This document shows, one piece after another, positions 3,036 to 64,000 of a DNA stretch of 64,000 bases. The stretch spans positions 186,001-250,000 of the forward strand of contig NZ_BLAD01000039.1 in the NCBI RefSeq assembly GCF_009687845.1, given 5' to 3'. This DNA is from Acrocarpospora corrugata (GTDB lineage Bacteria; Actinomycetota; Actinomycetes; Streptosporangiales; Streptosporangiaceae). The translations under genes were made by a program, and so were the position numbers. The notes under the pieces are model-generated. The model was given only the letters and a program-made list of their open reading frames with translations, ran no database searches and had not been told where the DNA came from. Within the stretch, counting starts at the first letter, position 1; every line of letters begins with the position of its first letter.

Positions 3036-3036
3036 C

Positions 3037-4014: not shown

Positions 4015-4039
4015 CCTACCGCACCAAACGGAGTGACAC

Positions 4040-6367
4040 ATGACCATCGTGACGGACACCGCCCAGGATGTGTGGAGGGACCCGCACCGGTCCCCCGAGG
4101 AGCGGGTCGAGGCGCTGATGGCGCGGATGAACCTGCCCGAGAAGATCGCCCAGCTGTACGGCGTCTGGGTGGGCATCGACAACACCGACGGCGAGATGGC
4201 CCCGCACCAGCACGAGTTCACCTCGCTGCCGGTCGCCTGGGACGAACTGGTCAAGGACGGGATGGGGCAGCTGACCCGGCCGTTCGGCACCGCGCCGGTC
4301 GACGCCGCCAAGGGCGCGGCCACCCTCGCCGCCGCCCAGCGCTCCATCATGTCGGCCGGCCGGTGGGGCATCCCCGCGGTCGTGCACGAGGAGATCCTGA
4401 CCGGCCTGGCCGCCTGGCAGGCCGGCGTCTACCCGTCGCCGCTGTGCTGGGGCGCGACCTTCGATCCCGAGCTGGTCGAGCGGATGGGCGCCCAGATCGG
4501 CGCCACCATGCGCCGCCTCGGCATCCACCAGGGCCTCGCCCCCGTCCTGGACGTCGCCCGCGACCTGCGGTGGGGCCGGGTCGAGGAGACCATCAGCGAG
4601 GACCCCCTGCTGGTCGGCATGATCGGCAGCGCCTACGTCCGCGGCGTGCAGTCCGCGGGCGTCATCGCCACGCTGAAGCACTTCGTGGGCTATTCGGCGT
4701 CCAAGGGCGGCCGGAACCTGGCCCCGGTGTCGGCGGGCCGCCGCGAGATCGCCGACGTGCTGCTGCCGCCGTTCGAGATGGCGCTGCGCGCGGGCGCCGG
4801 CTCGGTGATGAACTCCTACGCCGACATCGACGGCACCCCGGTGGCGGCCGACCCCGCCCTCCTCACCGACCAGCTGCGCGACCACTACGGCTTCACCGGC
4901 ACGGTGGTGGCCGACTACTTCTCCGTCGCGTTCCTGCAGACCCTGCACCACGTGGCGGAGTCCCCGGCGGACGCGGCCCGGCTGGCGCTCACCGCCGGCA
5001 TCGACGTCGAACTGCCCACGGTGAACTGCTTCGGGCCGCCGCTGGTCGACGCGGTCGAGCGCGGCGAGGTGGATATCGCGCTGATCGACCGGGCGCTGCG
5101 CCGGGTGCTGCTGCAGAAGTGCGAACTCGGCCTGCTCGACGAAGGCTGGACACCCGAGCCGCCCGTGCTGAGTGAGGACGGCGAGGTCGTGCTGGACGAC
5201 GCCGACGTGCGGGCCCTGGCCGGTGAGCTGGCCCGCCGCTCCGTCGTGCTGCTGCGCAACACCGCGGGGACGCTGCCGCTGGCGCCGGGCCTGAAGCTGG
5301 CCGTGGTGGGGCCGCGCGCCGACACCCCGCAGGCCATGCTGGGCTGCTACTCCTTCCCGATGCACGTCGGCGTGCACCACCCGGACACCGGGATGGGCAT
5401 CGAGGTGCCCACGCTGGTGGAGGCGCTGCGCGCCGACCCCGCCGGCTACGAAGTGCGCTACACCCAGGGCGTTCCGGTGCTCGGCGGCGACGACGAGGGC
5501 ATCGCCGCGGCCGTGGCCGCCGCGGCGGACGCCGACGTCTGCGTGGCGGTCCTGGGCGACCAGGCCGGACTGTTCGGGCGCGGCACCTCCGGTGAGGGCT
5601 GCGACGCGAGCGGCCTGGGCCTGCCCGGCCGCCAGGAGGAACTGCTGGAGGCCGTGCTGGCCACCGGCACCCCGGTCGTGCTGGTCCTGCTGGTCGGCCG
5701 TCCCTACGAGCTCGGCCGGCAGATCGACCGGCTGGCCGCCGTGGTGTGCGGGTTCTTCCCCGGCGAGGAGGGCGCGGCGGCACTGGCCGACGTGCTGTCC
5801 GGCCGGGCCGACCCGTCGGGCCGGCTGCCGGTGAGCTTCCCCCGGGACGGCGGCAACCAGCCGGCGACCTACCTGGGTGCGCCTCTCGCCCTGCGCAGCG
5901 AGGTCAGCAACGTGGACCCGACCGCGCTGTTCGCCTTCGGCCACGGGCTGTCCTACCACCCGGTCACCTGGGGCGGGATCACCGGGGACACCTCGTGGAC
6001 CACCGCGGGCACCTTCGACGTGCGGGTCACCCTGCGCAACGAGACCGAGCGGACGGCGTGCGAAGTGGTGCAGGTCTATCTGCACGACCCGGTCGCCGAG
6101 GTCGCCAGGCCCGTGCAGGCGCTGCTCGCCGCGCACCGCGTCGACCTGGCCCCCGGTGAGACGCGCGAGGTCACCCTCACGCTGCACGCCGACCAGACCT
6201 CCTACACGGGGGCGTCCTGGCTGCGGCAGGTCGACCCCGGCGCGGTGGAGCTGCGGGTGGGCGCGTCCAGCGCCGACATCCGGGAGACCATCGCCGTCAC
6301 GATGACCGGCCCTCGGCGGCACGTCGGCTTCGACCGGGTCATGCAGGCGACCGTCACCAGCGTGTGA
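4040..6367 (+). CDS. Glycoside hydrolase family 3 protein (beta-xylosidase/beta-glucosidase)
   Basis: This 775-aa protein has the full GH3 layout: a TIM-barrel domain (about residues 30-330), an alpha/beta sandwich (about 380-600) and a C-terminal fibronectin III-like domain (about 655-760). LKHFVGY matches the conserved KHF motif, and Asp292 in TVVADYFS is at the catalytic nucleophile position. No signal peptide is seen, so it probably acts in the cytoplasm on imported oligosaccharides. An ACGGAG ribosome site precedes the ATG. It is the last gene of the operon and ends at a bidirectional terminator. Xylosidase activity is favoured by the pentonate context, but glucosidase is possible. Confidence 0.9.
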   Translation: MTIVTDTAQDVWRDPHRSPEERVEALMARMNLPEKIAQLYGVWVGIDNTDGEMAPHQHEFTSLPVAWDELVKDGMGQLTRPFGTAPVDAAKGAATLAAAQRSIMSAGRWGIPAVVHEEILTGLAAWQAGVYPSPLCWGATFDPELVERMGAQIGATMRRLGIHQGLAPVLDVARDLRWGRVEETISEDPLLVGMIGSAYVRGVQSAGVIATLKHFVGYSASKGGRNLAPVSAGRREIADVLLPPFEMALRAGAGSVMNSYADIDGTPVAADPALLTDQLRDHYGFTGTVVADYFSVAFLQTLHHVAESPADAARLALTAGIDVELPTVNCFGPPLVDAVERGEVDIALIDRALRRVLLQKCELGLLDEGWTPEPPVLSEDGEVVLDDADVRALAGELARRSVVLLRNTAGTLPLAPGLKLAVVGPRADTPQAMLGCYSFPMHVGVHHPDTGMGIEVPTLVEALRADPAGYEVRYTQGVPVLGGDDEGIAAAVAAAADADVCVAVLGDQAGLFGRGTSGEGCDASGLGLPGRQEELLEAVLATGTPVVLVLLVGRPYELGRQIDRLAAVVCGFFPGEEGAAALADVLSGRADPSGRLPVSFPRDGGNQPATYLGAPLALRSEVSNVDPTALFAFGHGLSYHPVTWGGITGDTSWTTAGTFDVRVTLRNETERTACEVVQVYLHDPVAEVARPVQALLAAHRVDLAPGETREVTLTLHADQTSYTGASWLRQVDPGAVELRVGASSADIRETIAVTMTGPRRHVGFDRVMQATVTSV

Positions 6368-6374
6368 CGGCGAG

Positions 6375-6414
6375 AAAGACGGTGGCCCCGCGCGGCGGCG
6401 GGACCACCGTCTTT
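6375..6414. terminator. Bidirectional terminator between convergent operons
   Basis: AAAGACGGTGG (6375-6385) pairs with CCACCGTCTTT (6404-6414). The loop is GC-rich and a T-rich stretch follows on the plus side. The hairpin lies between the stops of the GH3 gene (forward) and the Gfo/Idh/MocA gene (reverse). Confidence 0.8.
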
Positions 6415-6416
6415 TC

Positions 6417-7412
6417 TCACTCGCCCGGGTAGCGCAGGCCGACCTGGGCCCGGACCTCGTCCATCGTGCCCATGATCTGGCAGGACTCGTCCAGGGTGAG
6501 GATCGGGCTCTCCAGCAGGCCCGCGCGCACGCAGCGCGCGACCTCCTCGGTCTGGAAGCGCAATCCGTTGCCCGGCACGGGGAACTCGTACCGCTCCACC
6601 GCGCCGGTGCGCGCGGTCAGCGTGAACGACGTCGGCCGGTACCACCAGGCGTCGATGTCGATGCGCGCGTCCGTCCCGGCGATGGTCGCCCGGTTGGGCA
6701 GGAACGCCTCCATGCTGCTGGTCGCCACGCCCTGGCGGCCGCCGCCGTACCCCATGATCATCGTGGTCTGGCCGTCCACGCCGGTGTCGCCGAACTGCGT
6801 GGCGGCGAGCACTGAGGCGGGGGCGCCGAGCACCATGGACAGGAACGACACCGGGTAGACGCCGAGATCGAGCAGCGCGCCGCCGCCCAGGTGCGGGTCG
6901 AACATGCGGTGCGCGGGGTCGCGGTGGAACCAGACGCCGTGCTCCGCGGTCACCATCCGCAGGTCGCCGAGACGGCCCTCGGCGAGCAGTTCGCGCAGCC
7001 GGACCATGTGCGGCAGGAAGCGGGTCCACATCGCCTCCATCAGGAACACCCCGCGGGCCCTGGCCGCCTTGACCAGGTCCTCGGCCTCGCCGCGGTTGAT
7101 GGTGAAGGGCTTCTCGACCAGTACGGCCTTGCCCGCCTCGATGGCGGCCAGGGCGGCGTCCCGGTGCGCGGGGTGCGGCGTCGCCACGTACACCGCGTCG
7201 ATGTCCTCGGCGGCCAGCAGTTCGGCCTGGTCGCCGTAGGAGCGGGGAGCGCCCACCTGGGCGGCGAACGCCTCGGCGCGGGCGGCGGTGCGCGAGCCGA
7301 CCGCCACCAGCCGGCCGGCGTCGGACAGCCGCAGATCCTCGGCGAAGTCCTTGGCGATGCCGCCGGTGCCGATGACGGCCCAGCGCAGGGGTTCGGGGGT
7401 CGGGGTGGTCAT
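6417..7412 (-). CDS. Gfo/Idh/MocA family oxidoreductase
   Basis: This 331-aa NAD(P)-dependent sugar dehydrogenase has the N-terminal Rossmann motif WAVIGTGGIAKDFAEDL, the family signature VEKPFTIN, and the segment FLMEAMWTRFLPHM. That segment is characteristic of the dimeric dihydrodiol dehydrogenase / D-xylose 1-dehydrogenase (NADP) branch. Its start overlaps the end of the upstream FAH-family gene by 4 bp. Xylose (or another pentose) oxidation to the lactone is the favoured role, given pentonate dehydratases in the same island. Confidence 0.85.
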   Translation of the reverse strand: MTTPTPEPLRWAVIGTGGIAKDFAEDLRLSDAGRLVAVGSRTAARAEAFAAQVGAPRSYGDQAELLAAEDIDAVYVATPHPAHRDAALAAIEAGKAVLVEKPFTINRGEAEDLVKAARARGVFLMEAMWTRFLPHMVRLRELLAEGRLGDLRMVTAEHGVWFHRDPAHRMFDPHLGGGALLDLGVYPVSFLSMVLGAPASVLAATQFGDTGVDGQTTMIMGYGGGRQGVATSSMEAFLPNRATIAGTDARIDIDAWWYRPTSFTLTARTGAVERYEFPVPGNGLRFQTEEVARCVRAGLLESPILTLDESCQIMGTMDEVRAQVGLRYPGE

Positions 7413-8305
7413 CGCAGCGAGCTCTCCAGAGTCAGGGCGGATTCGCCGGGCTTGCCGCGCGTGACGGGGTTGCGCAGCACGCCGACGCCACCGATGCCGA
7501 TCTCGACCACGTCGCCGGGGGCGAGGGTGAACGGCGACGGCGGCACCAGGCAGGTCCCGGTGGACAGCACCACGCCGTCAGGGTGCACGTCGCCGAACAT
7601 CAGATAGTCCACCAGGCCGTCCAGCCGCCTGCGCAGCTGCCCGGTGCCCGCCTCACCGTGCCACACCGATTCGCCGTCGCGGTGGATCGTCATCTCGATG
7701 GGCAGGTCATAGGGGTCCTCGACCTCCCACACCGGAGTGACCCAGGGGCCCAGACCGCAGGCGCCGTAGAAGATCTTGGCCTGGGGCAGGTAGAGCGGGT
7801 TCTCGCCCTCGATGCTGCGCGAGGACATGTCATTGCACACCGTGTACCCGACGATCTCGCCGAGGTTGTTCACCACCAGGGCCAGCTCGGGCTCGGGCAC
7901 GTCCACCACCGAATCCGGGCGGATGGACAGCTCTCCCCCGGTGCCCACCGCCCGCCAGCCGACCGACTTGAAGAACAGCTCGGGCCGCTCGGCGTCGTAG
8001 ACCTGCTCGTAGACGGTCGCGGACCGCTCGCTCTCCTCGACCCTGGCCTCCCGCGAGGTCCGGTACGTGACACCCGCCCCCCACACCTCGGTACGGCCGT
8101 CCACCGGCGCCAGCAGCTCGGCCTCCGCCAGCGGCACCCGCTCACCGAACGGACCCTCTGCCAGCCTGGCGCGCAGCGCGTCCAGCGGCAGCGTCCACAG
8201 CTGCGCGAGGGACGCGACACCGAGCAGCTCGGCGACGACGCCGTCGTCGTGCAGGCCGATCCGGGGTTCGGCGGATTGTCGCGTTCGATACCTGACGATG
8301 TTCAC
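7409..8305 (-). CDS. FAH-family 2-keto-3-deoxy-pentonate dehydratase-like enzyme
   Basis: This 298-aa fumarylacetoacetate hydrolase-fold protein starts at a GTG preceded by AAGGAG. VPEPELALVVN carries the ExE metal-binding pair, and YTVCNDMSSRSIEG followed by LPQAKIFYGACGLGP matches 2-dehydro-3-deoxy-D-arabinonate dehydratases more closely than true FAH. That enzyme converts 2-keto-3-deoxy-pentonate to alpha-ketoglutarate semialdehyde in Weimberg-type pathways. It sits between the sugar dehydrogenase and a sugar-acid dehydratase, as the pathway requires. The last enzyme, a semialdehyde dehydrogenase, is not in this window. Confidence 0.8.
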   Translation of the reverse strand: MNIVRYRTRQSAEPRIGLHDDGVVAELLGVASLAQLWTLPLDALRARLAEGPFGERVPLAEAELLAPVDGRTEVWGAGVTYRTSREARVEESERSATVYEQVYDAERPELFFKSVGWRAVGTGGELSIRPDSVVDVPEPELALVVNNLGEIVGYTVCNDMSSRSIEGENPLYLPQAKIFYGACGLGPWVTPVWEVEDPYDLPIEMTIHRDGESVWHGEAGTGQLRRRLDGLVDYLMFGDVHPDGVVLSTGTCLVPPSPFTLAPGDVVEIGIGGVGVLRNPVTRGKPGESALTLESSLR

Positions 8306-8313
8306 CTGACTCC

Positions 8314-9462
8314 TTAAATTTCCTGCGCGTGGGCCCGCAGGTAGTCCATGTCGAAATCGAGCCCGAGGCCGGGGCCCGGCGGCAGTCTCAGCCGTCCGTC
8401 GCGGTTGTCCAGCGGGGTGCGCAGGAACTGGTTGTACGCGCCGAGGTCGTGGCTGCTCGACTCCAGGCGGTAGAAGTTCGGCACGGTCAGCATCACGTGG
8501 CCGCCCGCGACGAGGTTGACGGGACCACTCGCGTCGTGCGGGGAAACCGGGACGTAGTACGCCTCGGCCATTGTGGCGATCTTCTTCAGTTCGCTGATGC
8601 CGCCGGTCCAGGTCACGTCCGGCATCACGAAGTCGGCGAGCCGGTTCTCCAGCACGGGGACGAAGTCCCAGCGGGTGTGCAGGCGTTCGCCCACCGAGAT
8701 GGGCACGCGCACACGGTCCCGTACCTGCTGGAGGGCGTGGCGGCTCTCGGGGGGCACGGGCTCTTCGTACCAGTGGATGCCGCCCACGTCATCCAGTGCC
8801 TGGCCCAATCGGATGGCGGTGGGGACGTCGAATCGGCCGTGCGCGTCGACGAGTAGTTCGACGTCGGGCCCGGCGAACTCGCGGATCCATTCGGTCAGCT
8901 CGATCGCCTGGCGCTCCAGCGCCCGGCTGAGCCGGCCGTCGAGGTAGCGGTCGTTGGCCGGCGGCTGGCCGGGTTCGTGCGGGAACGGGTCGAACTTGAT
9001 GGCGGTATGCCCGGAATCGACGATCTTCCCGATCTCCTCCGCGACTCCGTCCCTGGTGCCGAACCGGGACTGGTCGGGGTGGGTGTACAGCAGCAGATCG
9101 TCGCGGACCGCGCCGCCGAGCAGGTCGTACACCGGCACGCCGAGCACCTTGCCGCGGATGTCCCACAGCGCGATGTCGATGGCGCTGACCACGTTCGTGC
9201 CCGCCCCGCGACTGCCCAGGTAGGTGAACGCCCGGAACATCTTGTGCCAGATGTCCTCGATCCTGGCGGGGTCGTCCCCCGCGAGCAGCTCACCCGCCTG
9301 CCGCAACAGGGCGGCGACGCCGCGATTGGCCGCGCGGGTCGTGGTGGTGACCTCGCCCCAGCCGTCCACGCCCTGGTCAGTCCGTACCTGCAAAAACAGG
9401 AACTCGCCCCAGTAGGAGCCGCCCGACCGCACCAGCCACGGCACCAGCTCGACGATCTTCAC
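8314..9462 (-). CDS. Enolase-superfamily sugar-acid dehydratase (mandelate racemase/galactonate dehydratase type)
   Basis: The 382-aa protein begins at the GTG at 9460-9462, preceded by AGAGGAG; the much longer open frame upstream is the antisense-style shadow of the RraA gene. Metal ligands are at LLVDAHGR (Asp), WYEEPV (Glu) and SVGERL (Glu). VDAHGR has the Asp-X-His arrangement of D-galactonate dehydratase, whose His acts as general acid, and SPHDASGP supplies the barrel-end His/Asp. It therefore probably dehydrates an aldonic acid to a 2-keto-3-deoxy acid. Its TAA stop overlaps the ribosome site of the next gene. Confidence 0.85.
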   Translation of the reverse strand: MKIVELVPWLVRSGGSYWGEFLFLQVRTDQGVDGWGEVTTTTRAANRGVAALLRQAGELLAGDDPARIEDIWHKMFRAFTYLGSRGAGTNVVSAIDIALWDIRGKVLGVPVYDLLGGAVRDDLLLYTHPDQSRFGTRDGVAEEIGKIVDSGHTAIKFDPFPHEPGQPPANDRYLDGRLSRALERQAIELTEWIREFAGPDVELLVDAHGRFDVPTAIRLGQALDDVGGIHWYEEPVPPESRHALQQVRDRVRVPISVGERLHTRWDFVPVLENRLADFVMPDVTWTGGISELKKIATMAEAYYVPVSPHDASGPVNLVAGGHVMLTVPNFYRLESSSHDLGAYNQFLRTPLDNRDGRLRLPPGPGLGLDFDMDYLRAHAQEI

Positions 9463-9488
9463 GCCACCCGCTCCTCTCCGGCCCGACG

Positions 9489-10229
9489 TCACGCGCCGTG
9501 CCGGGCCTGCCGCCACCGCTCGTACTCGGGCGTGACCTGCTCCGCCAGCGGATAGTACGTTTTCAGGTCGCCGCCCTCGGACAGCCGCGTGCGGGAGAAC
9601 TCCTCCCATTCGGCATGCCGGCTCGCCTCGGCCAGCAGGGCGGGGGCCAGCTTGATCGGGACGACCACCGCGCCGTCGTCGTCGGCGACGATGATGTCGC
9701 CCGGCACGACGACGGTGTTGCCGCAGGCCACCGGCACATTGACGGCGGTGGGGAAGATGTCGGTCTGGGAGTGGAAGTTCGGGGTCGCGCCGCGCACCCA
9801 CAGGCCGAGGCCGAGTTCCCGCACCTTGCCGAGGTCGCGCACGCAGCCGTCCACGACGACGCCGAGGCCGCCGCGGTTCTTGAAATAGAGCATCATCATC
9901 TCGCCGAACACGCCGCTGCCCATGTCGCCGCGCGCGTCCACCACCACGATGTCGCCCGGCCGGGTGTGGTAGAGCACGTGCCTGTGCAGCTGCTTCTCCG
10001 GCTCGGCGTACTCGTCGACCGGGTAGAGGTCCTCGCGCTTCGGCATGAACTGCAGGGTCAGCGCCGGGCCTGCGACGCAGACGCCGGGCGTGTGCGAGAC
10101 CGGGCCGCGGATGTGCGCGCTGCGGATCCCGAGGCGGTTGAGCTCGCTGCTCGCGGTGGCGCTGCCGATGGCCTGTAATCCGGCCACGAGTTCGGCCGCC
10201 GGGCGAACGATGTCGTGCGTCTCGAACAC
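9489..10229 (-). CDS. RraA-like family protein (probable pyruvate-type class II aldolase)
   Basis: This 246-aa protein starts with GTG at 10227-10229. GVVVDGCVRDLGKV contains the Asp and Arg that bind metal and substrate in 4-hydroxy-4-methyl-2-oxoglutarate/4-carboxy-4-hydroxy-2-oxoadipate aldolases, and DIVVVDARGDMGSGVFGE is the other conserved segment. Such proteins are often misnamed menaquinone methyltransferases. As first gene of the reverse operon with two sugar-acid dehydratase-type enzymes, an aldol cleavage of a keto-deoxy sugar acid (Dahms-like branch) is a reasonable inference. Confidence 0.8.
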   Translation of the reverse strand: MFETHDIVRPAAELVAGLQAIGSATASSELNRLGIRSAHIRGPVSHTPGVCVAGPALTLQFMPKREDLYPVDEYAEPEKQLHRHVLYHTRPGDIVVVDARGDMGSGVFGEMMMLYFKNRGGLGVVVDGCVRDLGKVRELGLGLWVRGATPNFHSQTDIFPTAVNVPVACGNTVVVPGDIIVADDDGAVVVPIKLAPALLAEASRHAEWEEFSRTRLSEGGDLKTYYPLAEQVTPEYERWRQARHGA

Positions 10230-53210: not shown

Positions 53211-55277
53211 CTACTTGGTGGGAGTCGCTGCACTGTCCGGATCGATCACCGATTCGGTGGCGGTGTCGATCATCACAAGCCCGTAGGGGGTTCCGACATA
53301 GAGTCGCCTGCCGTCGGAGGCGACGGCGATGTACTCGGGCTCGGTGATCGGGATGGCGGCCGTGACCCTGTTCTTCTTGGGATCTATCACGCGTACTCCA
53401 GCCGTCGGGCCGCCCACCAAGGCGTAGAGATGTTTCCCGTCCGGGGCGGAGGCCAGAGCCAGGAGGCCGTCCACGGGGATCGACGCCAGCTGGGCATTGG
53501 TTTTGGTGTTGATCACGAGGATGCCGTTCGCCGTGCTGCCGATATAGAGGCGTTTGCCGTTCGGGCTCATCGCCAGGCCCCGGATGACACCGGGTTCGTC
53601 GGTCGGGACGCCGCGGACCCGCATCGTGCGCGTGTCGATCTCGACGGTCTCCGGGCCGGGGCCGGCGAATCTGGCGACGTAGACGCGCCGCTGATCCGGT
53701 GTGAGAGCGACATGGCTCGCATAGGGAACGGTGACTCGCTCCAGCACCTCCCCGTTCTTCACGTTGATCACGATGAACTGCGAATCGTCCCCTGCGTAGC
53801 TGGCCGCGTAGAGCCGCTTCTGGTCGTGGCTGAGCACCATATCGCCTGGTGGCGGCACTCGGATGAAGCGCGTCACGGTATCGGCTTTCCTGTCGATCAC
53901 GTGGATCCCGCCGTCTGCCGTGGCCGGGCACCGATTGGCGACATAGATGTACCGTCCGGCGGGCACGATCGCCATGGAGCCGTCCCCAAGGGCGGTTCGG
54001 TCGGGCTCGCCGCCGCAGGTGAGAGTGATCGTGGAGGTCACCCGTCCGGTCTGGGGGTCGACTACCTCGACATTCGTGGAGTTGCTGCTGACGTAGACAC
54101 GCTTGCCGTCCTGAGCCGCGGCGACACCCATCGGCCTGAGGATGTAAACGGCGGGGGTCCGCGAGAGTTTGGGCAGGACCAGCACGGCCAAAACGCCGCA
54201 GACCACCGCCAGGCCGGTGCAGAAGAAAAGAAGCGACCCCCGGCGATTCCGAGGCGCGGAAGCCACCTTGGACGGGGGCCGCACGGCCGGCTGGGGGGCG
54301 TTCACCACCCGTGGCGGGCGAAGCGATGTGGTGCCGGCATTCCTGCGGAATTCGTGTGCCCGGCGGTTCTTGTCGGCGTGATCGTCGAGGACCTTCACCT
54401 TCCGGGTGTCGTAGTTCCCGCGCGTCACGTAGGTGGACGACAGCGTGGACACCCACTCAGCAGGAGCCGGCCTCCTTTTGGCTTCGAGTGGCCGGCCAAG
54501 GGCGCGATCGAAGAGTGCTTTGATCTGGGTCGGCAGGGCGGCGGGCAAGGCCGCCGGTTTCGGCCAGATCGGGGATCCCGGGGGCTTCGCCAGATTGCCG
54601 GGGTTCAGCAGGAGCCCTCGATACATGACCAGCGCGAGGGCGTACCAGTCGCTGTAGTGATCATGAGCCGGGATGAGCCCGTCCCACCGGCGCGGATCAG
54701 TCCAGTCGGGGGTGATCAGCGCGTCCTTGCCGGACGCGGTCCGCTCTCGCAAACCGTCGCAGTCGATCAAGTAGGCACCCGCTTCCGGGCTTTCGCACCA
54801 CACCACGTTCCGGGCGGAGAGGTCTCCGTGCACCAACCCCTTCCCGTTCAGGAAGGCGAAGACTTCGGCGAGGCGTATGACCACCTCCAGCCTGATGACG
54901 GCACGCGGCGGGTCGGTCCGCGCCAGCAGCAGCCAATCCAGGGTGCACGGCTTTCCCGAGTTCCGGCGGAACCGGTGCGGGATCTCCGGCACGATGACGC
55001 CGCGAATCGAGGCACCCCCGGGTACCTCGATCGCGTCAATCGGCCAGTTGATCGAGTTGTATGGATTGGTCCCGAGCCGACTCTGCCCAACGACCGCAGG
55101 CCGCCCCAGATCGATCATCCGCCACAGCCGCGCGATGTCGGCCGGGTCGGATATCGGCCGGTGATACTGCTTGTACACCCATTCCCGCTGGGCACAGCGG
55201 AACAGCGTGGCCGCTCCTCCTGAGCCCATTTCTTCGTCGGTCACATCCCACTGGCCGAACCGTCCGCTGACTCTCAT
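53211..55277 (-). CDS. Transmembrane protein kinase with extracellular YVTN beta-propeller
   Basis: This 688-aa protein has an N-terminal kinase domain (glycine loop GSGGAATLF 18-26, Lys in VYKQY 34-38, catalytic loop HGDLSARN 150-157, metal site DCDG 172-175). A linker leads to one TM helix (348-369) and an extracytoplasmic propeller of about seven YVTN-type blades (376-675; e.g. GKRVYVSSNSTNVEVVD, GKRLYIGSTANGILVIN). HGDLSxRN with DCDG resembles kinases of TerY-linked triads rather than Hanks kinases with HRDLKxxN. It is the last gene after PP2C and vWA genes on this strand. The propeller probably senses a cell-surface ligand. Confidence 0.85.
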   Translation of the reverse strand: MRVSGRFGQWDVTDEEMGSGGAATLFRCAQREWVYKQYHRPISDPADIARLWRMIDLGRPAVVGQSRLGTNPYNSINWPIDAIEVPGGASIRGVIVPEIPHRFRRNSGKPCTLDWLLLARTDPPRAVIRLEVVIRLAEVFAFLNGKGLVHGDLSARNVVWCESPEAGAYLIDCDGLRERTASGKDALITPDWTDPRRWDGLIPAHDHYSDWYALALVMYRGLLLNPGNLAKPPGSPIWPKPAALPAALPTQIKALFDRALGRPLEAKRRPAPAEWVSTLSSTYVTRGNYDTRKVKVLDDHADKNRRAHEFRRNAGTTSLRPPRVVNAPQPAVRPPSKVASAPRNRRGSLLFFCTGLAVVCGVLAVLVLPKLSRTPAVYILRPMGVAAAQDGKRVYVSSNSTNVEVVDPQTGRVTSTITLTCGGEPDRTALGDGSMAIVPAGRYIYVANRCPATADGGIHVIDRKADTVTRFIRVPPPGDMVLSHDQKRLYAASYAGDDSQFIVINVKNGEVLERVTVPYASHVALTPDQRRVYVARFAGPGPETVEIDTRTMRVRGVPTDEPGVIRGLAMSPNGKRLYIGSTANGILVINTKTNAQLASIPVDGLLALASAPDGKHLYALVGGPTAGVRVIDPKKNRVTAAIPITEPEYIAVASDGRRLYVGTPYGLVMIDTATESVIDPDSAATPTK

Positions 55278-55286
55278 GGCCGGTCT

Positions 55287-56144
55287 TCAGGGCAGCCAGA
55301 CCACGACGGCCGTCCGGTCGTCGTGGGAACCTTTGCGCCGGTAGCGCAGGATGTCAGTCATCTGGTGCGGGCCACAGCGGACCGACCAGGATGCGGCCAG
55401 CCACTCTCGGATGGCGGGTGAGTTCTGGACGTCTTCCGCGAGTCCGTCGGTCATCAGGGAGAGCGCGTCCTCCCCGCCTAGGCGGAGGCTGACCAGTTCC
55501 AGCGCCTTGTCCGGCTCATCGCACGGAAGGGCGGCCTGAACGATGTTGAGCGGCCCGTCCCCATGCGGGAAGACGGGGCTGAGCTCGCGATTCGCGAGCG
55601 TGACGGCGGCGCAGTCACCCACCCGGCCGACGATCACCTCCTGACCCGGGCCGACCGGAATCCAGGCGAAGGCGAGCGTGGTGGCGAGGTCGCCGTCCGG
55701 CGCGCCCGGCATGATTTCGTCCCGGTACCAACGCACGTCGTCGTTGGCCGCACGCAACGCCGTCACCATCGCGTCCTCCGGCGCGGCGAGGACCTCGGGG
55801 GTGCTGAGCCCGGCGAGGCGAAGGCAGAGCAGCCGGGTCAGCAGCACCGCTCCGGCCTGGGCGGTCGCCGGGCGAGAACCCAGTCCGTCCGCTACCGCTA
55901 CGATCATGGCGGCGCCGTCAGCGGCGAGGGCGAAACTGTAACTGTCCTGCCCGGTCCGGCCGTGCTGGAGGTGCCCCAGCCCACTGAGGCTGGCGGCGGC
56001 GAGCCAGAAAGGGCCGACCGCTCCGGCGTCCGCGCACACGGCGGGCAACCGCCAGGCGTTCTCCGCGTCGAGGAGAAGCGAGAAGCCGTCCGTCACCTCC
56101 CCCACCGTCGGTGCCAGAGTCGACAGCTCGCGCAGTTCTCGCAT
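55287..56144 (-). CDS. PP2C-family protein phosphatase
   Basis: This 285-aa protein starts at the ATG at 56142-56144, two bases after the vWA stop. It has metal-binding PP2C motifs: RTGQDSY (63-69), VADGLGS (84-90), VGDC (175-178), MTDGLAED (231-238) and HDDRTA (274-279). It is soluble. With the kinase downstream and the vWA protein upstream it forms a reversible phosphorylation unit. Confidence 0.92.
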   Translation of the reverse strand: MRELRELSTLAPTVGEVTDGFSLLLDAENAWRLPAVCADAGAVGPFWLAAASLSGLGHLQHGRTGQDSYSFALAADGAAMIVAVADGLGSRPATAQAGAVLLTRLLCLRLAGLSTPEVLAAPEDAMVTALRAANDDVRWYRDEIMPGAPDGDLATTLAFAWIPVGPGQEVIVGRVGDCAAVTLANRELSPVFPHGDGPLNIVQAALPCDEPDKALELVSLRLGGEDALSLMTDGLAEDVQNSPAIREWLAASWSVRCGPHQMTDILRYRRKGSHDDRTAVVVWLP

Positions 56145-56146
56145 GC

Positions 56147-56854
56147 TCAATTGCTCCTGACCGGAAGCGCGATGAACTTGGTCGAGTCGATCGGCACTCC
56201 CAGCCCTCCCGCGGGGGCTTGGCCGGCGTCGGCCGCTCTGAGGGAACCAGAGGTGAACTTGATGCTGCCGATCACGGCCGCGATGATCTCCTTCAACTGT
56301 TCGGCGGGCGGGCGGCCGGAACGCGCGAGAAACGCGTGCGTCGTCGCGATCCGCTGCAGATCGTCCGGGTCGGCATCCCGGAATCCGAAGGCGACGATCT
56401 CCGGGCGGTACTTGTTCGACGCGCTGGTCAGTTCGCGCAGCGGCCCGGCCCATGGGTCCTGGGGCACGTTGTGCTCGCCGTCCGTCCAGAAGTAGAGCAC
56501 CGGGGTGTGGAAGGGCGCCTTGGGGCCGAGCTCACGGATCGCGGACTCGATCTCCAGCCGGACGATCCGGAACGCCTCCGCGAAATTGGTCTGCTGGCCT
56601 TCGATCTTCACTTCCGGCATCTCCATGTACTGGATGTCCGACAGCGGCAGGACTCTGGTGGCTCGCTGAGCGAAGGTGATGACAGCGAGCCTGGCCTTCT
56701 CACAGACGTCCGGCTCCTCCTTGAGCACTGTCCTGATCTCGCGGAGCGCGGTGTTCAGGGTCGGGAGTTCCCGGCTCATCGACGGGGAGACATCCACGAG
56801 GAGGAAGACGGGGAAGGTGGCGAACTGCTCTACCTCGCTGAACTGCTTGGGCAT
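56147..56854 (-). CDS. TerY-like von Willebrand factor A domain protein
   Basis: This 235-aa soluble vWA protein has a complete MIDAS: DVSPSMS (21-27), Thr89 in GQQTNFAEA and Asp in WTDGEHN (123-129). The opening FPVFLLVDVSPSMSRELPTL followed by LNTAL is characteristic of TerY-type proteins. It starts seven bases after the frame end of the membrane protein. It likely scaffolds kinase, phosphatase and substrate in a metal-dependent way. Confidence 0.9.
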   Translation of the reverse strand: MPKQFSEVEQFATFPVFLLVDVSPSMSRELPTLNTALREIRTVLKEEPDVCEKARLAVITFAQRATRVLPLSDIQYMEMPEVKIEGQQTNFAEAFRIVRLEIESAIRELGPKAPFHTPVLYFWTDGEHNVPQDPWAGPLRELTSASNKYRPEIVAFGFRDADPDDLQRIATTHAFLARSGRPPAEQLKEIIAAVIGSIKFTSGSLRAADAGQAPAGGLGVPIDSTKFIALPVRSN

Positions 56855-56860
56855 GTGTCC

Positions 56861-58344
56861 TCATCTCAGGAGAGCGGTGGAGTTCGTCTGGACCAGGTCG
56901 GTGCTGTCGGCAGGCGACGGGGTAAGACCGGCCATGATCAGTGCGGCCAGCAATGCGCACACGACCCCCGCCAACGGGAGCAGAACGGGAGCGACGACGT
57001 TCGGCCGGGATCGGGAGGTCCCTCGGCCAGGATCGCGGTGGGGCCGTCCTTGGGTCGGAGCGCCGGCACATTGCGCGGGGCAGGCGATTCGGTCAGTTCG
57101 GGCGAGTTCTGTACGCCGGCCACGGTGGAAACACCGCTGACCTTGCCCAGCTCCGCCATGAGGGAGGCCAGCTTGGTCTGGGCCTGCTTCAGTCGCTCGA
57201 TGCCGGCGTCCTGGTTGGGGAACGCGCGTCCTTCGATGTCGCCGGAGGTGACCGGAATCTCCCGAAGGCCCATCCAGGCTGACGCCCAGCCCATCGCCTC
57301 CTGGTATTTGACGGTCACCCACAGCCGGTCCTCGTAACCGTGGACGGCGGCCGTCTCCGCTTTGGCTCCAAGAGCCCGGGCCTGATCGCCGGAGGCTCTG
57401 GCCTGGTCGATCAACGAGCCGTACCGGTCCTCGACCTCAGCCACGACGCCTTTGCCGTTTCTGATCAGATCGCCCAGGAGACTGCCGCGGCACAGGGCGA
57501 CGAATCCCAGGGCGACGGCGAGTTGCCGATCGGCGGTCTCTATCTCGGCGGGCGTGGGGGCCGCCCAGGCCGGCGCCGCCTTCCTGCGGCGTCCACGGAT
57601 CCGGGTGGCGGCGTAGGAGTGATCACCCACAGCCGAGCGGCGGTCGTGGCAGGCGCGTTCCCTGGCCTTGTAGAGGGTGAGCGCCAGATGGATCGCGCCC
57701 GCCCAGATGAAGGCCAGGCAGGCCGCCGCACCCCACTTCAACGCGGCGGTCAAGGACTCCAGCGAGCCGAGATTGAAGATGAAGTCCCAGTAGAGGACGA
57801 CGTCGAGCAGGGCGATGCCGCATGCGGCCAGCGGAGTCCAGTACCCGGGGATGGGTGACTCGTCGTGCCGGGGATCGGGTCGCTCCCGCTCCCGGAGCAG
57901 GGCTCGCTGGTGATCGTTGATCACTTCGGCGCCCGCGACCCGCCCCCCGCCGGGAACTTCGTAGGACGCGCTGAGCACCTCCGGCAGTGTCGCCAGGTCG
58001 GCCAAGCCCTCGTCGGAGGCTGGCTCCATCTGCTGGGCGTAGCGCAGCAACGCGTCGTCGTGGGACCAGGCGACCTCGGAGGCGTCGTCCAGAAGCTTGT
58101 TGAGTATGGTCTTGAATGCGATGTGCTGGACGTCGTCCAGGACGGTCCCGGTCCGGTGCTCACCGGTGTCCGGGTCCCGGGTCGAGTCTCTGATCGCCAT
58201 GGCGATGCCCAGCACGGCCTCGTCGGATGGCCCTCCGGCGTACGGAATGGCAGAGGGCTCGATGTCCCAGCCCGCCAGCACGCGAGGGCGGCAGTCAGGG
58301 CAGGGGTTCGTGCGGATGCCCAGTTCCGATTGGTCGCGATTCAT
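56861..58344 (-). CDS. CxxC membrane protein with probable frameshift near its 3' end
   Basis: The ATG at 58342-58344 has GAAGGAG upstream. The N-terminus has CPDC (a possible zinc or redox site), then two TM segments at about residues 165-215 and a long helical region (about 290-400) of coiled-coil character. The main frame ends at 56938 with a Cys/Trp/Arg-rich junk tail. The -1 frame, entered at a GGG run (57020-57022), encodes a clear TM helix (NVVAPVLLPLAGVVCALLAA) and stops at 56861, seven bases before the vWA gene. The intact protein would therefore have three TM helices and about 493 residues. Confidence 0.7.
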
Positions 58345-58358
58345 GCTCGCGTGCTCCT

Positions 58359-59554
58359 TCAGCCCGATAACTCGATCTTGACGATGACGACCCGCTGCGC
58401 CTTATCCGTGACGGGTTCGACCAGGTCCGCGGGACGGTCCCAGCCGACGCCGTCGCCCGAATGAGCTGCTGTGGAAGACCGGCCTCGACCAACAGATCGG
58501 CGATCACCTCGGCACGTCGCCGGGCGAGCTCCCTGGCTCCTTCGCGGGTGCCGAAGCGGGCGCAGAATCCGGTCACGTGCACCAGCGAGCCCACAGGGGC
58601 CTGGTTGTACTGGGCGACGATCAGCTTGATCGAGCGCTGGACCGCCGCCCGGTCCAGCAGAGTGGCCTCGTCGGGGCGGAAATGGCCCGCGTCGATCCGG
58701 TCGGGAGGCGTCAGTCTCGCTTTGACGGTGGCGAATTCCACTACGGCGGAGGACCCCGGCCAGGGCGGGGCGATAGTCGAATCGATGATGGGCTGGTTGA
58801 CGTGGGCGCCGAGCGCTTTGCCGAGGTGGGTAATGAATTCCTCCCGCCAGGCGTCGTCGGCCACGCTCATCGGCTTCTGGCCGGGTCCGGTGGCGTTCAG
58901 CAACACCGGCTGAAGATCGACCCCGGACAGGTCGATCTTGGCGATCGCGGTCTTCATGACCTCCTCCACGGCCTTCTCGGGATCGGTCGCGGTCAGCCGG
59001 GGCAAGTCCAGCGGGACGACGGACGCGCTCATGACCGAGGTGGCGAGGACGACCTCACGGCGGCCGGCGCGGGACCCGTCCTCGGCGACCCGGAGGGCGG
59101 CGTAGAGGTCGAAGCCGGCCGTGCCGACCGGGGTGGCGGCGACTGACTTCGTCAGGGCACTCGTCCGGCGGCCTATCTCCTGGTCCCGGAGGAATACGTC
59201 GCGTTCCCGCTCGCCCTGCCGCAGCACTTCCAAGGAGATCCGGCCGACCGGAGCGGCGGCGCGGCCCACGGCGTACACTTCCAGGCCGCCATCGCCGGCC
59301 TTTGCGATCTCCGTAACCCGATCACGGACGTACTGGGGGATCCCGCCCTGGACCCGGTCGGTCTTCTCGGCTATCCAGAGGAGTTCGGTGCGGGATATCG
59401 GGGCCACGTCATGGTCTCGCGTGAGCACGAAGGCAACCACACCGATTGCCGCAACGACCGCCAGCCCCAGGGCGATGCCTGCCCCGCTCCGGTTCGGACG
59501 CCGCGGCGGTGGCAACCGTCGTGGCCGGTCATACGCTCGTCGTCGCGGTTTCAT
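58359..59554 (-). CDS. OmpA-family peptidoglycan-binding protein, with probable frameshift
   Basis: The ATG at 59552-59554 has GGAAGG upstream. A single TM helix (GIALGLAVVAAIGVVAFVLT, about residues 26-45) anchors an extracytoplasmic part. The C-terminal OmpA-like domain shows VEFATVKARLTP, VHVTGFCARFGT and ARELARRRAEVIADLLVEAG. The frame then derails at a GGG run (58456-58458). The -1 frame reads GDGVGWDRPADLVEPVTDK then AQRVVIVKIELSG, the normal end of an OmpA domain, and stops at 58359-58361. The intact protein is about 398 aa and should tether the system to the wall. Confidence 0.75.
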
Positions 59555-59708: not shown

Positions 59709-61337
59709 GTGAACCCATTCCCGCTGGACGACGACCTGTGTGACGGCCTCGGCCCGGAGACGGCCGAATACCTGTCCACCTGGGCCGTGAACGCGCGGAC
59801 CAGTTATGCGCTGCGCAACTGGCTCACGGGCGGCCTGTCCGGAGCGAAAGTCTGTGTGGTCGACGAGATCGGCCGGGATCGCGTCATGCGGCGTCTCATT
59901 CTCAAAGTCGAGGAATTCCCGAAAGCGGCGATCGACGGAAGGCTCGGCGAGTACGGCCGGCATAGCGACGCCCTGCACGAGGCACCCAAGGGATTCGCAT
60001 GGGCCCATCTCACGGAACTGGTGTACGGCCCGATCCCCGTCGGCCTTCGCAGGCTGGCCCTGTTCCAGCAGGTCGTAGGAGCAGATGTCGGAGAGTTCGT
60101 GCTGCTGGGCGCGCTACTGGACGGCGCCCGAGCCAGCGAGGGAAGAGCGCACGCCGAGGATTTCACCGTCGCCTGCGAAACGGTCGTGCGATCGGTCCTC
60201 GCCGACTGGGCGGAGAAGCCACGCGCGCTGTCGGCGGAAGGCCGCGAACGATGGCGCGCGGGCAAGGACGGCCGCGTCCGGGTGAGCGACTTCCTCGACG
60301 TGTCGCTGGCAGAATGGCCAGCCGCGAAAGCCGTCACGACGAAACGGTCCGAAGCCATCCGCGGCAACTACATCGCCGTCGAGGGGGAACCGCGGAAGCT
60401 ACCCAACCCGCTCGCCGTCGTCGCCGGAGAGACGCTGATCGCCGGCCACGAGTTCCTGCCCCTGATGGGAAAGGCGCACGGCGATCTGCACATCAAGAAT
60501 ATTCTTCTCCCGGTCGACCCGGCCCGCTCCTCCGGAGCCGACCCCGCCGCCTACCGCCTCGTGGACCTGGCGAAATATCGCCAGGAACTGCCCCTCACCG
60601 GAGATCCCGTCTACCTGATTCTCTATGTGATCGCACGCGTCATGCCCGACCTGTCCCACTCGCAGCGAGACGCCCTGGTGGACCTGCTCACCAGACCGGC
60701 CTCTGGCGCCGCGCACCTGATTCCCGGCTGGCTGGCCGGTTTCATCACCCGAGTCATCGCCGTCGCGCGCGGGTGGGCAGGTGAGAGCAGGATGGCACGC
60801 GACTGGGACGAGCAGTCGCTGCTCTCCATGGTCGCTCACGGGCTGGTCTACTGGGCCCGCGGTTCCACCAGGCCGGAAGACCAGGAGTGGTTCCTCCGGC
60901 TGTCCGGCCGCGCGCTGGCGGAGTATCAGCGCGCCGTCCTCCCGATGGCGGCCGCGGCGGCACCCCCACGGGAGCCACCTACCTCCAAGCGCACCGCGGA
61001 CCCGAACTGGATCGCGCAGTTCTGCGGACTGCTGCCCGAGCTCCGGCGACGCGCCGCCGGGACCGAACTCGTCACCGAAGTCGAGGCCCTGGTGGCCGCA
61101 GCCCAGCTCGGAGACGATGCGACGGACCGGCTCGACGCCCTGATCCGCCGGATGGACGACCTGAACGGGGGAGGACTGCGGCACGTCCCGGGGCTCCGCG
61201 GCGGGTGGCCCCTCATGGAGGACGCCTTCGCCTGCCCCACCGGCTTCTGCCCGCGCCTCGACACCCGGCAGCCGACGCACGGCGTTCCGCTGTGCCACAT
61301 CCCTCAGGAGCGTCGTATGACGCTCCGCCGACGCTGA
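59709..61337 (+). CDS. Kinase-fold protein with Cys-rich C-terminal tail
   Basis: This 542-aa protein starts at GTG with GGAGG upstream. Residues 40-70 hold a glycine-containing loop (TGGLSGAKV) and Lys66 (LILKVEEF). HGDLHIKN (257-264) and LVDLAKY (Asp286) are the catalytic and metal sites of the aminoglycoside-phosphotransferase-like kinase fold, separated from the N-lobe by an unusually long insert. A helical region follows, then a C-terminal tail with CPTGFCPR (509-516) and Cys529. That tail resembles short Cys motifs at the ends of actinobacterial conflict/signalling proteins. Substrate unknown. Confidence 0.7.
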   Translation: MNPFPLDDDLCDGLGPETAEYLSTWAVNARTSYALRNWLTGGLSGAKVCVVDEIGRDRVMRRLILKVEEFPKAAIDGRLGEYGRHSDALHEAPKGFAWAHLTELVYGPIPVGLRRLALFQQVVGADVGEFVLLGALLDGARASEGRAHAEDFTVACETVVRSVLADWAEKPRALSAEGRERWRAGKDGRVRVSDFLDVSLAEWPAAKAVTTKRSEAIRGNYIAVEGEPRKLPNPLAVVAGETLIAGHEFLPLMGKAHGDLHIKNILLPVDPARSSGADPAAYRLVDLAKYRQELPLTGDPVYLILYVIARVMPDLSHSQRDALVDLLTRPASGAAHLIPGWLAGFITRVIAVARGWAGESRMARDWDEQSLLSMVAHGLVYWARGSTRPEDQEWFLRLSGRALAEYQRAVLPMAAAAAPPREPPTSKRTADPNWIAQFCGLLPELRRRAAGTELVTEVEALVAAAQLGDDATDRLDALIRRMDDLNGGGLRHVPGLRGGWPLMEDAFACPTGFCPRLDTRQPTHGVPLCHIPQERRMTLRRR

Positions 61338-61347
61338 GGTGGCTGTC

Positions 61348-62133
61348 GTGGGCCCCCACTTCCGCCTCCTGTACGGGATGCTCTGGCTGGTCGCGGTAGC
61401 AGCGGGAACGACGCTCGGCCATACACGCTGGGCCGACCTGTCCCGGCTCCGGCTGGAGCCGACGGTCACCACTGTCGTGGGCGCCCTGCTGGCCGCGACC
61501 GCCGTGGCCGTGATGGCACGCGCCCTCGGCGGCGTGGTGCTCGCGATCTGGACGAACGGTCCCAGCGGCCGGTGGGCAGCCGCTCTGACCGAGGCGAGAG
61601 CCCGGCGCTGGCAGCGGGCCGACGCCCTCGTCACAGCCGTGAACAAGGTGGCGGACCCGGCGGCCTACGCGAGAGCGATGGCGCGCCGGAACCGGATCTG
61701 CCTGGTCCCCCCGTCCTGCCCCACCTGGACGAGCGACGCGATCATCGCCCGGGAGACCCGGATCCGCACCGAGTACGGACTCGACCTCTATTTCGCCTGG
61801 CCGCACCTGCTTCTGGTCGCCCCCGAAGCCGCCCGCCGGGAATCCGCGCGGAGCCTCGCCGCTTGGACCTGGGCCGGCGAGGTCAGCGCCTGGGGTGTGC
61901 TCTTCCTGCTGCCGGGCTCGCGATGGTGGCCCGCTGCCGCGGCGGGGGCCATCATCTGCGTCGTCGGCTGGTGGCAAGGCCGCGCGGCGTGGACCAGCCA
62001 CACAGCGGTCACCGAGGCCGTCGCCGACCTGTACGGCCCGGCGCTCGCCACCCGGCTCCGGATCGACGCGAGCCAATGGCCGGACCTGGCGACCGGCCGG
62101 GAGATCACCGACCGCCTGCGCAAAGGAGCGTGA
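61348..62133 (+). CDS. Membrane protein of unknown function
   Basis: Assigned to the GTG at 61348, which has GAGGTGG at good distance; a GTG at 61339 is possible. The 261-aa protein has two N-terminal TM helices (LYGMLWLVAVAAGTTLG; TVVGALLAATAVAVMA) and two closer to the middle/C-terminus (SAWGVLFLLPG; AAAAGAIICVVGWW), with cytoplasmic helical regions. No family recognised. Eleven bases separate it from the kinase-like gene, so they form one operon. Confidence 0.7.
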   Translation: MGPHFRLLYGMLWLVAVAAGTTLGHTRWADLSRLRLEPTVTTVVGALLAATAVAVMARALGGVVLAIWTNGPSGRWAAALTEARARRWQRADALVTAVNKVADPAAYARAMARRNRICLVPPSCPTWTSDAIIARETRIRTEYGLDLYFAWPHLLLVAPEAARRESARSLAAWTWAGEVSAWGVLFLLPGSRWWPAAAAGAIICVVGWWQGRAAWTSHTAVTEAVADLYGPALATRLRIDASQWPDLATGREITDRLRKGA

Positions 62134-62138
62134 CCGGC

Positions 62139-64000
62139 TCACCGCTGGACGGCACGCAGCCGCTCCAGGGTGGCCCGAGTGTGCGGATGTTCGTCCCCCA
62201 GCACCTCCGACCGGATCGCCAGCACCTCGCTCATGATCTCCACCGCGCCCGCGACGTCCCCGCCGAGGTGCCGTAACTCGCCGAGCGACTGCCGGACCGT
62301 GAGCGCACGCGGATGCCGAACCCCGAGGACCCGGGCGCAGATCAGGGCCAGTTCGGTGAGCACGGCCTCGGCCCCGACCAGGTCTCCCCGGTCGCAGGCG
62401 ACCAGCGCCAGGTAGTGGCGGGTGATGAGGGTGGCGGGGAACTCCGCCCCCAGCAGCCGCGTGCGGGCGTGCAGAACCTCGGTCAGCATCCGCTCGGCCT
62501 CGTCGGCGTCCCCCCGGGATCGCAACAGGTCGGCGAGATTGTTCTTGCTGGTCAGAGTGTCAGAATGATCGGGTCCGAGCGACTCCGCGCGGGCCTGGAG
62601 GGTCCGGCGCAGCAGGTCCTCCGCCTCATCGAGACGGTCCAGGTCGCGGAGCACCCGGGCCAGGTAGTGCTGAGTCGTCAGCGTGTCCGGGTGGCGGGTG
62701 CCGAGCACCCGGCGCCGGGCGGGCAGGATCGAGCGGAAGCCCTGTTCAGCCTCCAGGTAACGGCCCAGCATGTGGCGCACGCGGTTGAAGTCGTGCCGCA
62801 GCATGAGCAGCCGGGGATGGTCCACAGAAAGGACATCCCGACCGGTGGCGATGACCGTCTCGTAAATCTCCTCGGCCTGTTCCAGACGCCCGGCCGACAG
62901 CAGGTAACGGGCGGCGAGCGTGGCTGGGCCGAGGACCCCGGGAGGGGGCGTCCGGCCGAGGCCGAGCGCGCCGATCAGGTCGAGCGGGGCCCGGCAGTGG
63001 TCGGCCAGCACCCGCCACTTCGCCCACGAGCGCGGGTTCTTGGGGTCCAGGCCGTCGGCCACCTCCGACAGCAGTTCGGTCAGCAGCGCGAGGTAGGCGT
63101 CGGCCTGGTCCTCGACCCGGTCGCGGCTGGTGTCCCGGACCAGCGGATGGATCACCAGCAGGTCGGCCACGTCGGGGTCGGCTTGGTCGTCCCTGACCAG
63201 ATCGACCAGGCCGACGTTGGCCAGGGCCAGCACGGTCTCGCGCAGCAGCACCGGGGTCAACCCGGGAAACAGCGCCGAGCGAGCCAGCACCGCGGGCTGG
63301 AGCAGCAGGCCGTACGGCACGGGGGCCGGGCGCAGGCACGACAGCGCCCGGAGCAGCGGCCGAGCGTACCGCAGGCCCAGAGTCTCCAGCAGGTCAAGCG
63401 ACAGTTCCCAGGTCCGGCCGACCTGACCGCGCGCCTGGCGGCCCACCGGTGAGCGCGCCGACTCGCCCAGCACCTCGCTGTGCCGCCCTTCTTCGAGCGC
63501 CCGCGCGAACTCGGCGAAACTGACGGGACCCGCGATGGAGCGGGGCAGCCGGTGCGCCTCGGCAAGATGCATACCCGCCAGCCGGAGCGCCAGCGGCAGG
63601 CCGCCGAGCCGCTCGGCCAGAGCTCTGGCATCGCCGACCGAGCCGGCCATCGGACCCGCCAGATCAAGCAGCACCTTGGCCCCATCGGCCGCGCTCAGCG
63701 GGTCCACCCGGTGCAAACGCAGCCAGGACGCGTGCCTGCCCCAGACCTCGGGAGCGCCGTCCCGCGAGGTGACCACGACCAGACCGAACCTGCCCTCTAC
63801 CGGCCGCAGCCAGCCGGTGGCATCGGTCACCGGCGCATCCCCGGGGCAGAGGTCGCGCCGGGGGTTGTCGGCGTCATCGATGACCAGCAGCCAGGGCTGG
63901 CGGTATTCGCGCAGGAGCCGCCAGACCACGTCGGGCTGGCTGCCGAACCGTAACAGCTGCGAACTCGCGCCGAGATCGGCGGTGAGCGCGCGCATTCCCT
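62139..64000 (-). CDS. STAND NTPase (NB-ARC-like) with TPR repeats, partial at the window edge
   Basis: At least 619 residues are inside the window; the N-terminus and Walker A lie beyond base 64000. Walker B is WLLVIDDADN, sensor 1 is VVVTSRDG, and GGLPLALRLAG is the GxP motif of NB-ARC-type STAND ATPases. A winged-helix-like region follows, then six or so kinesin-light-chain-type TPRs (about 40-residue units such as HPDTLTTQHYLARVLRDLDR). It converges on the membrane protein gene with 5 bp between stops. A signal-dependent oligomerising switch is the family role. Confidence 0.88.
   Translation of the reverse strand, partial: GMRALTADLGASSQLLRFGSQPDVVWRLLREYRQPWLLVIDDADNPRRDLCPGDAPVTDATGWLRPVEGRFGLVVVTSRDGAPEVWGRHASWLRLHRVDPLSAADGAKVLLDLAGPMAGSVGDARALAERLGGLPLALRLAGMHLAEAHRLPRSIAGPVSFAEFARALEEGRHSEVLGESARSPVGRQARGQVGRTWELSLDLLETLGLRYARPLLRALSCLRPAPVPYGLLLQPAVLARSALFPGLTPVLLRETVLALANVGLVDLVRDDQADPDVADLLVIHPLVRDTSRDRVEDQADAYLALLTELLSEVADGLDPKNPRSWAKWRVLADHCRAPLDLIGALGLGRTPPPGVLGPATLAARYLLSAGRLEQAEEIYETVIATGRDVLSVDHPRLLMLRHDFNRVRHMLGRYLEAEQGFRSILPARRRVLGTRHPDTLTTQHYLARVLRDLDRLDEAEDLLRRTLQARAESLGPDHSDTLTSKNNLADLLRSRGDADEAERMLTEVLHARTRLLGAEFPATLITRHYLALVACDRGDLVGAEAVLTELALICARVLGVRHPRALTVRQSLGELRHLGGDVAGAVEIMSEVLAIRSEVLGDEHPHTRATLERLRAVQR

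What the first reader, a model, noticed from the sequence alone, without database searches (positions are those of the whole stretch)
53211..59554. Transmembrane, wall-linked version of a TerY-P triad (propeller kinase + PP2C + vWA + membrane + OmpA proteins)
Seen: five tightly spaced same-strand genes encode an OmpA-like wall-binding protein, a CxxC multi-TM protein, a TerY-like vWA protein with full MIDAS, a PP2C phosphatase with all metal motifs, and a kinase whose catalytic loop is HGDLSARN plus DCDG. Known: vWA (TerY-type) + PP2C + kinase is the TerY-P triad described for Ter-dependent stress systems, where the components are mostly soluble. Inferred: here the kinase has gained a TM helix and an external YVTN propeller, and an OmpA protein anchors the assembly. 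It would be an outside-in phosphorylation system sensing the wall or a surface ligand. This combination seems undescribed.
Basis: partly seen in the sequence, partly recalled or inferred. Interest (0 to 1): 0.85.

Follow-up and report, generated by a model that had tools for sequence, protein, structure and literature searches.

The report
Membrane TerY-P-like kinase triad, propeller ectodomain
A soil actinobacterium carries a known kind of three-protein phosphorylation switch whose kinase spans the membrane and shows a propeller-shaped sensor outside; the switch and membrane-bound versions of it are already described, while the propeller and the (apparently damaged) wall-type neighbours are found only in this genome so far.

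Summary
The five genes are real and probably co-transcribed. The core is an intact vWA + PP2C + kinase triad. Its kinase has one TM helix and a predicted external seven-bladed YVTN propeller. The triad is not new: 26 of 29 distinct related kinases I collected lie within 5 kb of both a vWA and a PP2C gene, and 22 have TM helices. Membrane-linked triads are published (Kaur 2020), and all three proteins have relatives in E. coli YegI-PphC-YegL, where YegI is a membrane kinase. A TerY-P triad is an experimentally supported anti-phage system (Gao 2020, as cited). Kinase-TM-propeller is the PknD architecture. The "wall" half needs correcting. The OmpA-like and CxxC membrane genes are each frameshifted near the 3' end; the CxxC protein lacks about 49 residues present in an intact paralogue; the OmpA domain lacks the usual DAP-contact Asp. 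The pair was found only in this genome, twice. The second copy has no triad but lies beside a TPR-CHAT protein, and so does the window's pair (about 5 kb away); the two CHAT proteins are best paralogues. I read the pair as part of a separate CHAT-linked module that has met a TerY-P-like triad here: a new variant of a known kind, moderate interest.

The parts
53211..55277 (-). Kinase (1-300) + TM helix (349-367) + C-terminal seven-bladed YVTN-type beta-propeller
55287..56144 (-). PP2C-type Ser/Thr phosphatase, metal motifs intact
56147..56854 (-). Stand-alone TerY/YegL-type vWA protein with complete MIDAS
56938..58344 (-). CxxC membrane protein; frameshifted near the 3' end (about 56987-57028; the alternative frame continues to 56861 and encodes a TM helix) and missing about 49 aa relative to its paralogue
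58295..59554 (-). Single-TM protein with OmpA-like C-terminal domain; frameshifted near the 3' end (about 58437-58471; alternative frame stops at about 58359)
59709..61337 (+). Divergent neighbour gene: APH-like kinase (HGDLHIKN), weak match to TCAD9 (ternary complex associated domain 9), below the Pfam cut-off
61348..62133 (+). Neighbour gene: small membrane protein, no family
62139..64000 (-). Neighbour gene: HTH-STAND/NACHT-TPR protein (continues to 64601 in window numbering, beyond the window); next to it outside the window lies a 1301-aa TPR-CHAT protein at 64611-68516

Best explanation
The core is a membrane-linked TerY-P-like phosphorylation switch. The propeller outside the cell senses a ligand or the state of the cell surface; the signal passes through the single TM helix to the cytosolic kinase; PP2C resets the phosphorylation; the vWA protein acts as a Mg2+-dependent peptide-binding adaptor that brings kinase, phosphatase and substrate together. 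It most likely serves a conflict or stress (phage-defence-type) programme, because the locus lies in an island of STAND-TPR, APH/TCAD9-like and TPR-CHAT (caspase-like) genes, and the same triad in sister species lies next to caspase-NACHT genes. The OmpA-like and CxxC genes belong to a separate membrane module tied to a TPR-CHAT protein; they sit in the same apparent operon here and are probably impaired in this strain. Shown: gene content, motifs, kinase fold, repeat pattern, linkage, paralogy, frame breaks. Inferred: topology, sensing, phosphotransfer, biological role.
For: Motifs and domains intact. Kinase fold modelled with high confidence. Gaps of 2 and 9 bp within the triad. 29 of 33 related kinase hits (26 of 29 distinct ones) lie within 5 kb of both vWA and PP2C genes. 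Homology of all three proteins to E. coli YegI, YegL and PphC (hhalign 98.6%, 99.5%, 76.5%), where YegI is membrane-bound and autophosphorylates and PphC dephosphorylates it (PMC13232886). TerY-P acts against T7-like phages (PMC7699616 and PMC11090510). Caspase-NACHT neighbours of the triad in A. macrocephala and A. pleiomorpha. The OmpA/CxxC pair recurs at contig C75 with a TPR-CHAT protein that is the best paralogue of the one beside the window (714 bits, next 350).
Against: No PADLOC model hits the vWA or PP2C protein, and the kinase hits are weak and generic. The propeller's outside location rests on one predicted TM helix with only a slight charge bias (4 basic residues before, 3 after). 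The propeller was modelled with low confidence. The ABC transporter genes 71 bp downstream could belong to the operon and point to a transport or antibiotic-response role. TPR-CHAT genes are numerous in this genome (about eight), so their proximity could be partly chance. Genomes were sampled, not exhaustively searched.
Confidence: 0.55

Rival explanations
1. One reading: all five proteins form one wall-anchored complex in which the OmpA protein ties the kinase, phosphatase and vWA to peptidoglycan and the triad reads the state of the wall.
For: Same strand and tight spacing: 6 bp between the end of the CxxC alternative frame and vWA. The OmpA protein is predicted N-in with the OmpA domain outside. 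Kaur et al. report peptidoglycan-associating domains, OmpA included, in related conflict systems.
Against: The pair is absent from all other triads examined; samples of order, class and phylum gave no other full relative. The second copy has no triad. Both genes are frameshifted. The DAP-contact Asp is replaced.
Confidence: 0.15
2. A housekeeping-type receptor kinase of PknD style (osmotic, nutrient or developmental signalling, possibly through the adjacent ABC transporter), not a conflict system.
For: Kinase-TM-propeller is the PknD architecture; an ABC-type exporter follows 71 bp downstream on the same strand; several actinobacterial triads collected show no obvious defence genes around them.
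Against: The kinase belongs to the divergent YegI/TerY-P family rather than the canonical Hanks family of PknD. Patchy distribution: 24 of 297 class genomes. STAND, CHAT and caspase neighbours.
Confidence: 0.2
3. A decaying locus: the OmpA and CxxC genes are pseudogenes and the triad is a remnant without function.
For: Two frameshifts and an in-frame gap of about 147 bp within 1.6 kb.
Against: vWA, PP2C and kinase are full-length with every catalytic motif kept; the frameshifts may be assembly errors in a 170-contig draft.
Confidence: 0.1

Closest known systems
Actinobacterial kinase-PP2C-vWA triads in GAP1-N2 GTPase systems (Kaur et al. 2020, PMC7159879)
   Same: Same three components in adjacent genes, kinase often fused to TM helices, membrane-proximal conflict role proposed
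   Different: No propeller ectodomain or OmpA/CxxC genes mentioned for the triad; no GAP1 or GTPase partner identified here
TerY-P triad (Anantharaman 2012; Gao 2020, as cited in PMC11090510 and PMC7699616)
   Same: TerY-like vWA + PP2C + kinase; anti-phage activity shown for a member
   Different: Those kinases carry a C-terminal zinc ribbon or OB-fold; here a TM helix and propeller; no Ter genes found nearby
E. coli YegI-PphC-YegL
   Same: All three proteins homologous; YegI is a membrane kinase, autophosphorylates and is dephosphorylated by PphC
   Different: YegI has a different C-terminal region and altered catalytic motifs; no propeller; yegJ lies between in K-12
M. tuberculosis PknD
   Same: Cytosolic kinase, membrane anchor, external beta-propeller sensor
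   Different: Six-bladed propeller, different kinase family, no vWA/PP2C operon (own knowledge for the last point)
A. macrocephala / A. pleiomorpha triads (L083, L085)
   Same: Same gene order vWA-PP2C-kinase, about 40-50% identity, TM kinase, caspase-NACHT genes divergent
   Different: Different ectodomain (DCDDPHWGQ motif, septum-formation-like by eye), no OmpA/CxxC

Membership tests
TerY-P / YegIKL-type phosphorylation triad | Adjacent vWA, PP2C and kinase genes | tested here: met
   linkage repeated in 26 of 29 distinct relatives
TerY-P / YegIKL-type phosphorylation triad | vWA of TerY/YegL type with MIDAS | tested here: met
   (hhalign 99.5% with YegL)
TerY-P / YegIKL-type phosphorylation triad | Kinase of the same divergent family | tested here: met
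   profile built without YegI against YegI, 98.6%, E 6e-16
TerY-P (strict) | Kinase with C-terminal zinc ribbon (or OB-fold) | tested here: not met
   C-terminus is TM + propeller
TerY-P (strict) | Linkage to Ter (TerBCD) genes | tested here: inconclusive
   no Ter-type domain among genes scanned at about 51.4-70.3 kb; the rest of the window was not scanned, and many TerY-P triads lack Ter genes
TerY-P (Gao anti-phage system) | Protects against phage | not testable with these tools
   needs an infection assay
GAP1-N2 systems (Kaur theme 3) | Kinase, PP2C and vWA linked to GAP1 and DO-GTPase | tested here: not met
   no GAP1 or GTPase match among flanking genes
PknD-type receptor kinase | Kinase-TM-propeller architecture | tested here: met
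   outside location is inferred
PknD-type receptor kinase | Canonical Hanks kinase and six-bladed NHL propeller | tested here: not met
   canonical kinase models below cut-off; seven YVTN-type repeats
OmpA/Pal peptidoglycan-binding protein | OmpA-like domain | tested here: met
   Pfam 4.7e-9, though its last strand is lost by the frameshift
OmpA/Pal peptidoglycan-binding protein | DAP-contact Asp (GHTD) and Arg | tested here: not met
   GFCA replaces GHTD; Arg kept

The most novel reading that the evidence does not exclude
A composite immune-type system: a surface propeller kinase with its vWA/PP2C switch controls, by phosphorylation, an OmpA/CxxC membrane assembly and a STAND plus TPR-CHAT protease pair, linking an outside signal to caspase-like proteolysis.
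Probability: 0.13. Interest if true: 0.7.

Novelty: new variant of a known kind. Interest (0 to 1): 0.4.

Why it matters
It shows that the TerY-P-like switch swaps its sensing end freely (zinc ribbon, OB-fold, TM pairs, Cys-rich or helical ectodomains, and here a propeller), which makes it a modular input device for bacterial conflict and stress systems. If the link to CHAT proteases is functional, it would make phosphorylation control of a bacterial caspase-like protease testable.

Tried and rejected
Defence annotation by PADLOC: no useful hit. GAP1-N2/DO-GTPase partners near other triads: none found by Pfam. OmpA relatives on plasmids: none; OmpA/CxxC relatives in order, class and phylum samples: only two weak partial hits, E 5e-5 and 5e-9. 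The kinase on plasmids: two weak hits. The structure model of the OmpA protein was too poor to use, pLDDT 45, so no fold search was run with it. A propeller in other triad kinases: none. Promoter/terminator scan and repeat search: nothing above chance. The hhalign run of A3 against YegI was circular, because A3 contains YegI, and was replaced. The two primary papers on YegI and PphC and the TerY-P papers of 2012 and Gao 2020 were not held or not read; they are cited through papers that were read.

Full report
Setting. The window lies on contig C39 of a 9.27 Mb draft genome of 170 contigs. Two same-genus genomes carry close triads; the contig lengths (102249 and 165091) equal those of Acrocarpospora macrocephala NBRC 16266 and A. 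pleiomorpha NBRC 16267 in the named collection, so the genus is Acrocarpospora.

Observation. All five minus-strand genes exist at the stated coordinates. Pfam finds OmpA, vWA, PP2C and propeller domains; the kinase domain is too divergent to pass the Pfam cut-off, but its residues 1-310 are modelled with high confidence and match protein kinases by fold. GSGG, Lys36, HGDLSARN and DCDG are present, and Lys36, Asp152, Asn157 and Asp172 are invariant in 14 relatives, so ATP binding and catalysis are plausible. The TM helix is at 349-367. Seven YVTN-type repeats follow, about 41-50 residues apart, and the best solved relative is an archaeal surface-layer propeller (1l0q). The charge bias around the TM is small, so the outside location of the propeller is an inference.

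An intact paralogue pair at contig C75 (L023) exposes damage in the window's OmpA and CxxC genes. The OmpA frame changes near 58437-58471; the lost end, DKAQRVVIVKIEL, is present in another frame and matches the paralogue. The CxxC frame changes near 56987-57028, and a C-terminal TM helix continues in another frame. About 49 residues with two TM helices are absent from the CxxC protein. Codon-position GC confirms both breaks. I cannot tell assembly error from real mutation. The OmpA domain aligns to Pal with GFCA at GHTD, so the usual diaminopimelate contact is absent in both paralogues (the role of that Asp is my own knowledge).

Relatives. A profile of the kinase finds it in 24 of 297 sampled class genomes. 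In the neighbourhoods fetched, 29 of 33 kinase hits lie within 5 kb of both a vWA and a PP2C gene and 24 have predicted TM helices. Three of the 33 are the same loci fetched twice and two are fragments of one gene; counted once each, the figures are 26 and 22 of 29. The C-terminal parts differ widely: Cys-rich, helical, paired TM, or a DCDDPHWGQ domain. None has a propeller, and none is next to OmpA/CxxC genes. The three-gene core is therefore conserved and the five-gene set is not. OmpA/CxxC was found as a full relative only in this genome in samples of order, class and phylum.

A different grouping. In this genome the OmpA/CxxC pair occurs twice. At C75 it is followed by an M48 peptidase and a TPR-CHAT protein. 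Beside the window's pair, past a divergent APH/TCAD9-like gene and a STAND-TPR gene, lies another TPR-CHAT protein. The two CHAT proteins are 39% identical over 1265 alignment columns, and the C75 one is the best paralogue by a factor of two in score among about eight. The CHAT His and Cys motifs are present. This suggests that OmpA + CxxC + TPR-CHAT form one module and the triad another. In the two sister species the triad is next to divergent caspase-NACHT and caspase genes. Both lines point to a conflict-type setting, as proposed for related systems by Kaur et al. (PMC7159879).

Comparison with the known. The triad is homologous to YegI-PphC-YegL of E. coli. YegI is membrane-bound, autophosphorylates and is dephosphorylated by PphC (PMC13232886). 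Kaur et al. describe actinobacterial kinases with TM helices beside PP2C and vWA genes. TerY-P acts against T7-like phages, and kinases with an OB-fold in place of the zinc ribbon are known (PMC7699616, PMC11090510). PknD supplies the kinase-membrane-propeller precedent (PMC3322341). What remains new is the combination of this kinase family with a YVTN propeller, and the chance or functional meeting with the OmpA/CxxC module.

Verdict. Real and tidy, but a new variant of a known kind; the wall-anchoring idea is weakly supported and the two genes behind it look damaged.

Noticed in passing
L023 (G000:C75:3000-20000), 1532-10016: Second OmpA + CxxC-TM pair, intact, followed by an M48 peptidase and a TPR-CHAT protein, with no vWA/PP2C/kinase.
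   Followed up: partly
window 59709-61337 (+): APH-like kinase with HGDLHIKN and a weak TCAD9 match, divergent from the five-gene set.
   Followed up: no
L024, L064, L065 (and a similar arrangement in L067, where no vWA/PP2C was called): Triad genes are preceded by a coiled-coil TM protein (weak ZorA match in L024) and a small one-TM protein with the motif AGWLFADLLL; in L064 a BrxC/D-type ATPase and a DEAD helicase are adjacent (Pfam), and L067 has similar-looking genes. Looks like a Zorya/BREX-like composite.
   Followed up: partly
L024:7325-8929: vWA and PP2C read as one 534-aa open frame in the same genome's second triad; fusion or frame error not resolved.
   Followed up: no
L066:8062-9650: Kinase split over two overlapping frames, possible frameshift.
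   Followed up: no
L011/L012 (same loci as L083/L085): Caspase-NACHT protein and a separate caspase-domain protein divergent from the triad in A. macrocephala and A. pleiomorpha.
   Followed up: partly
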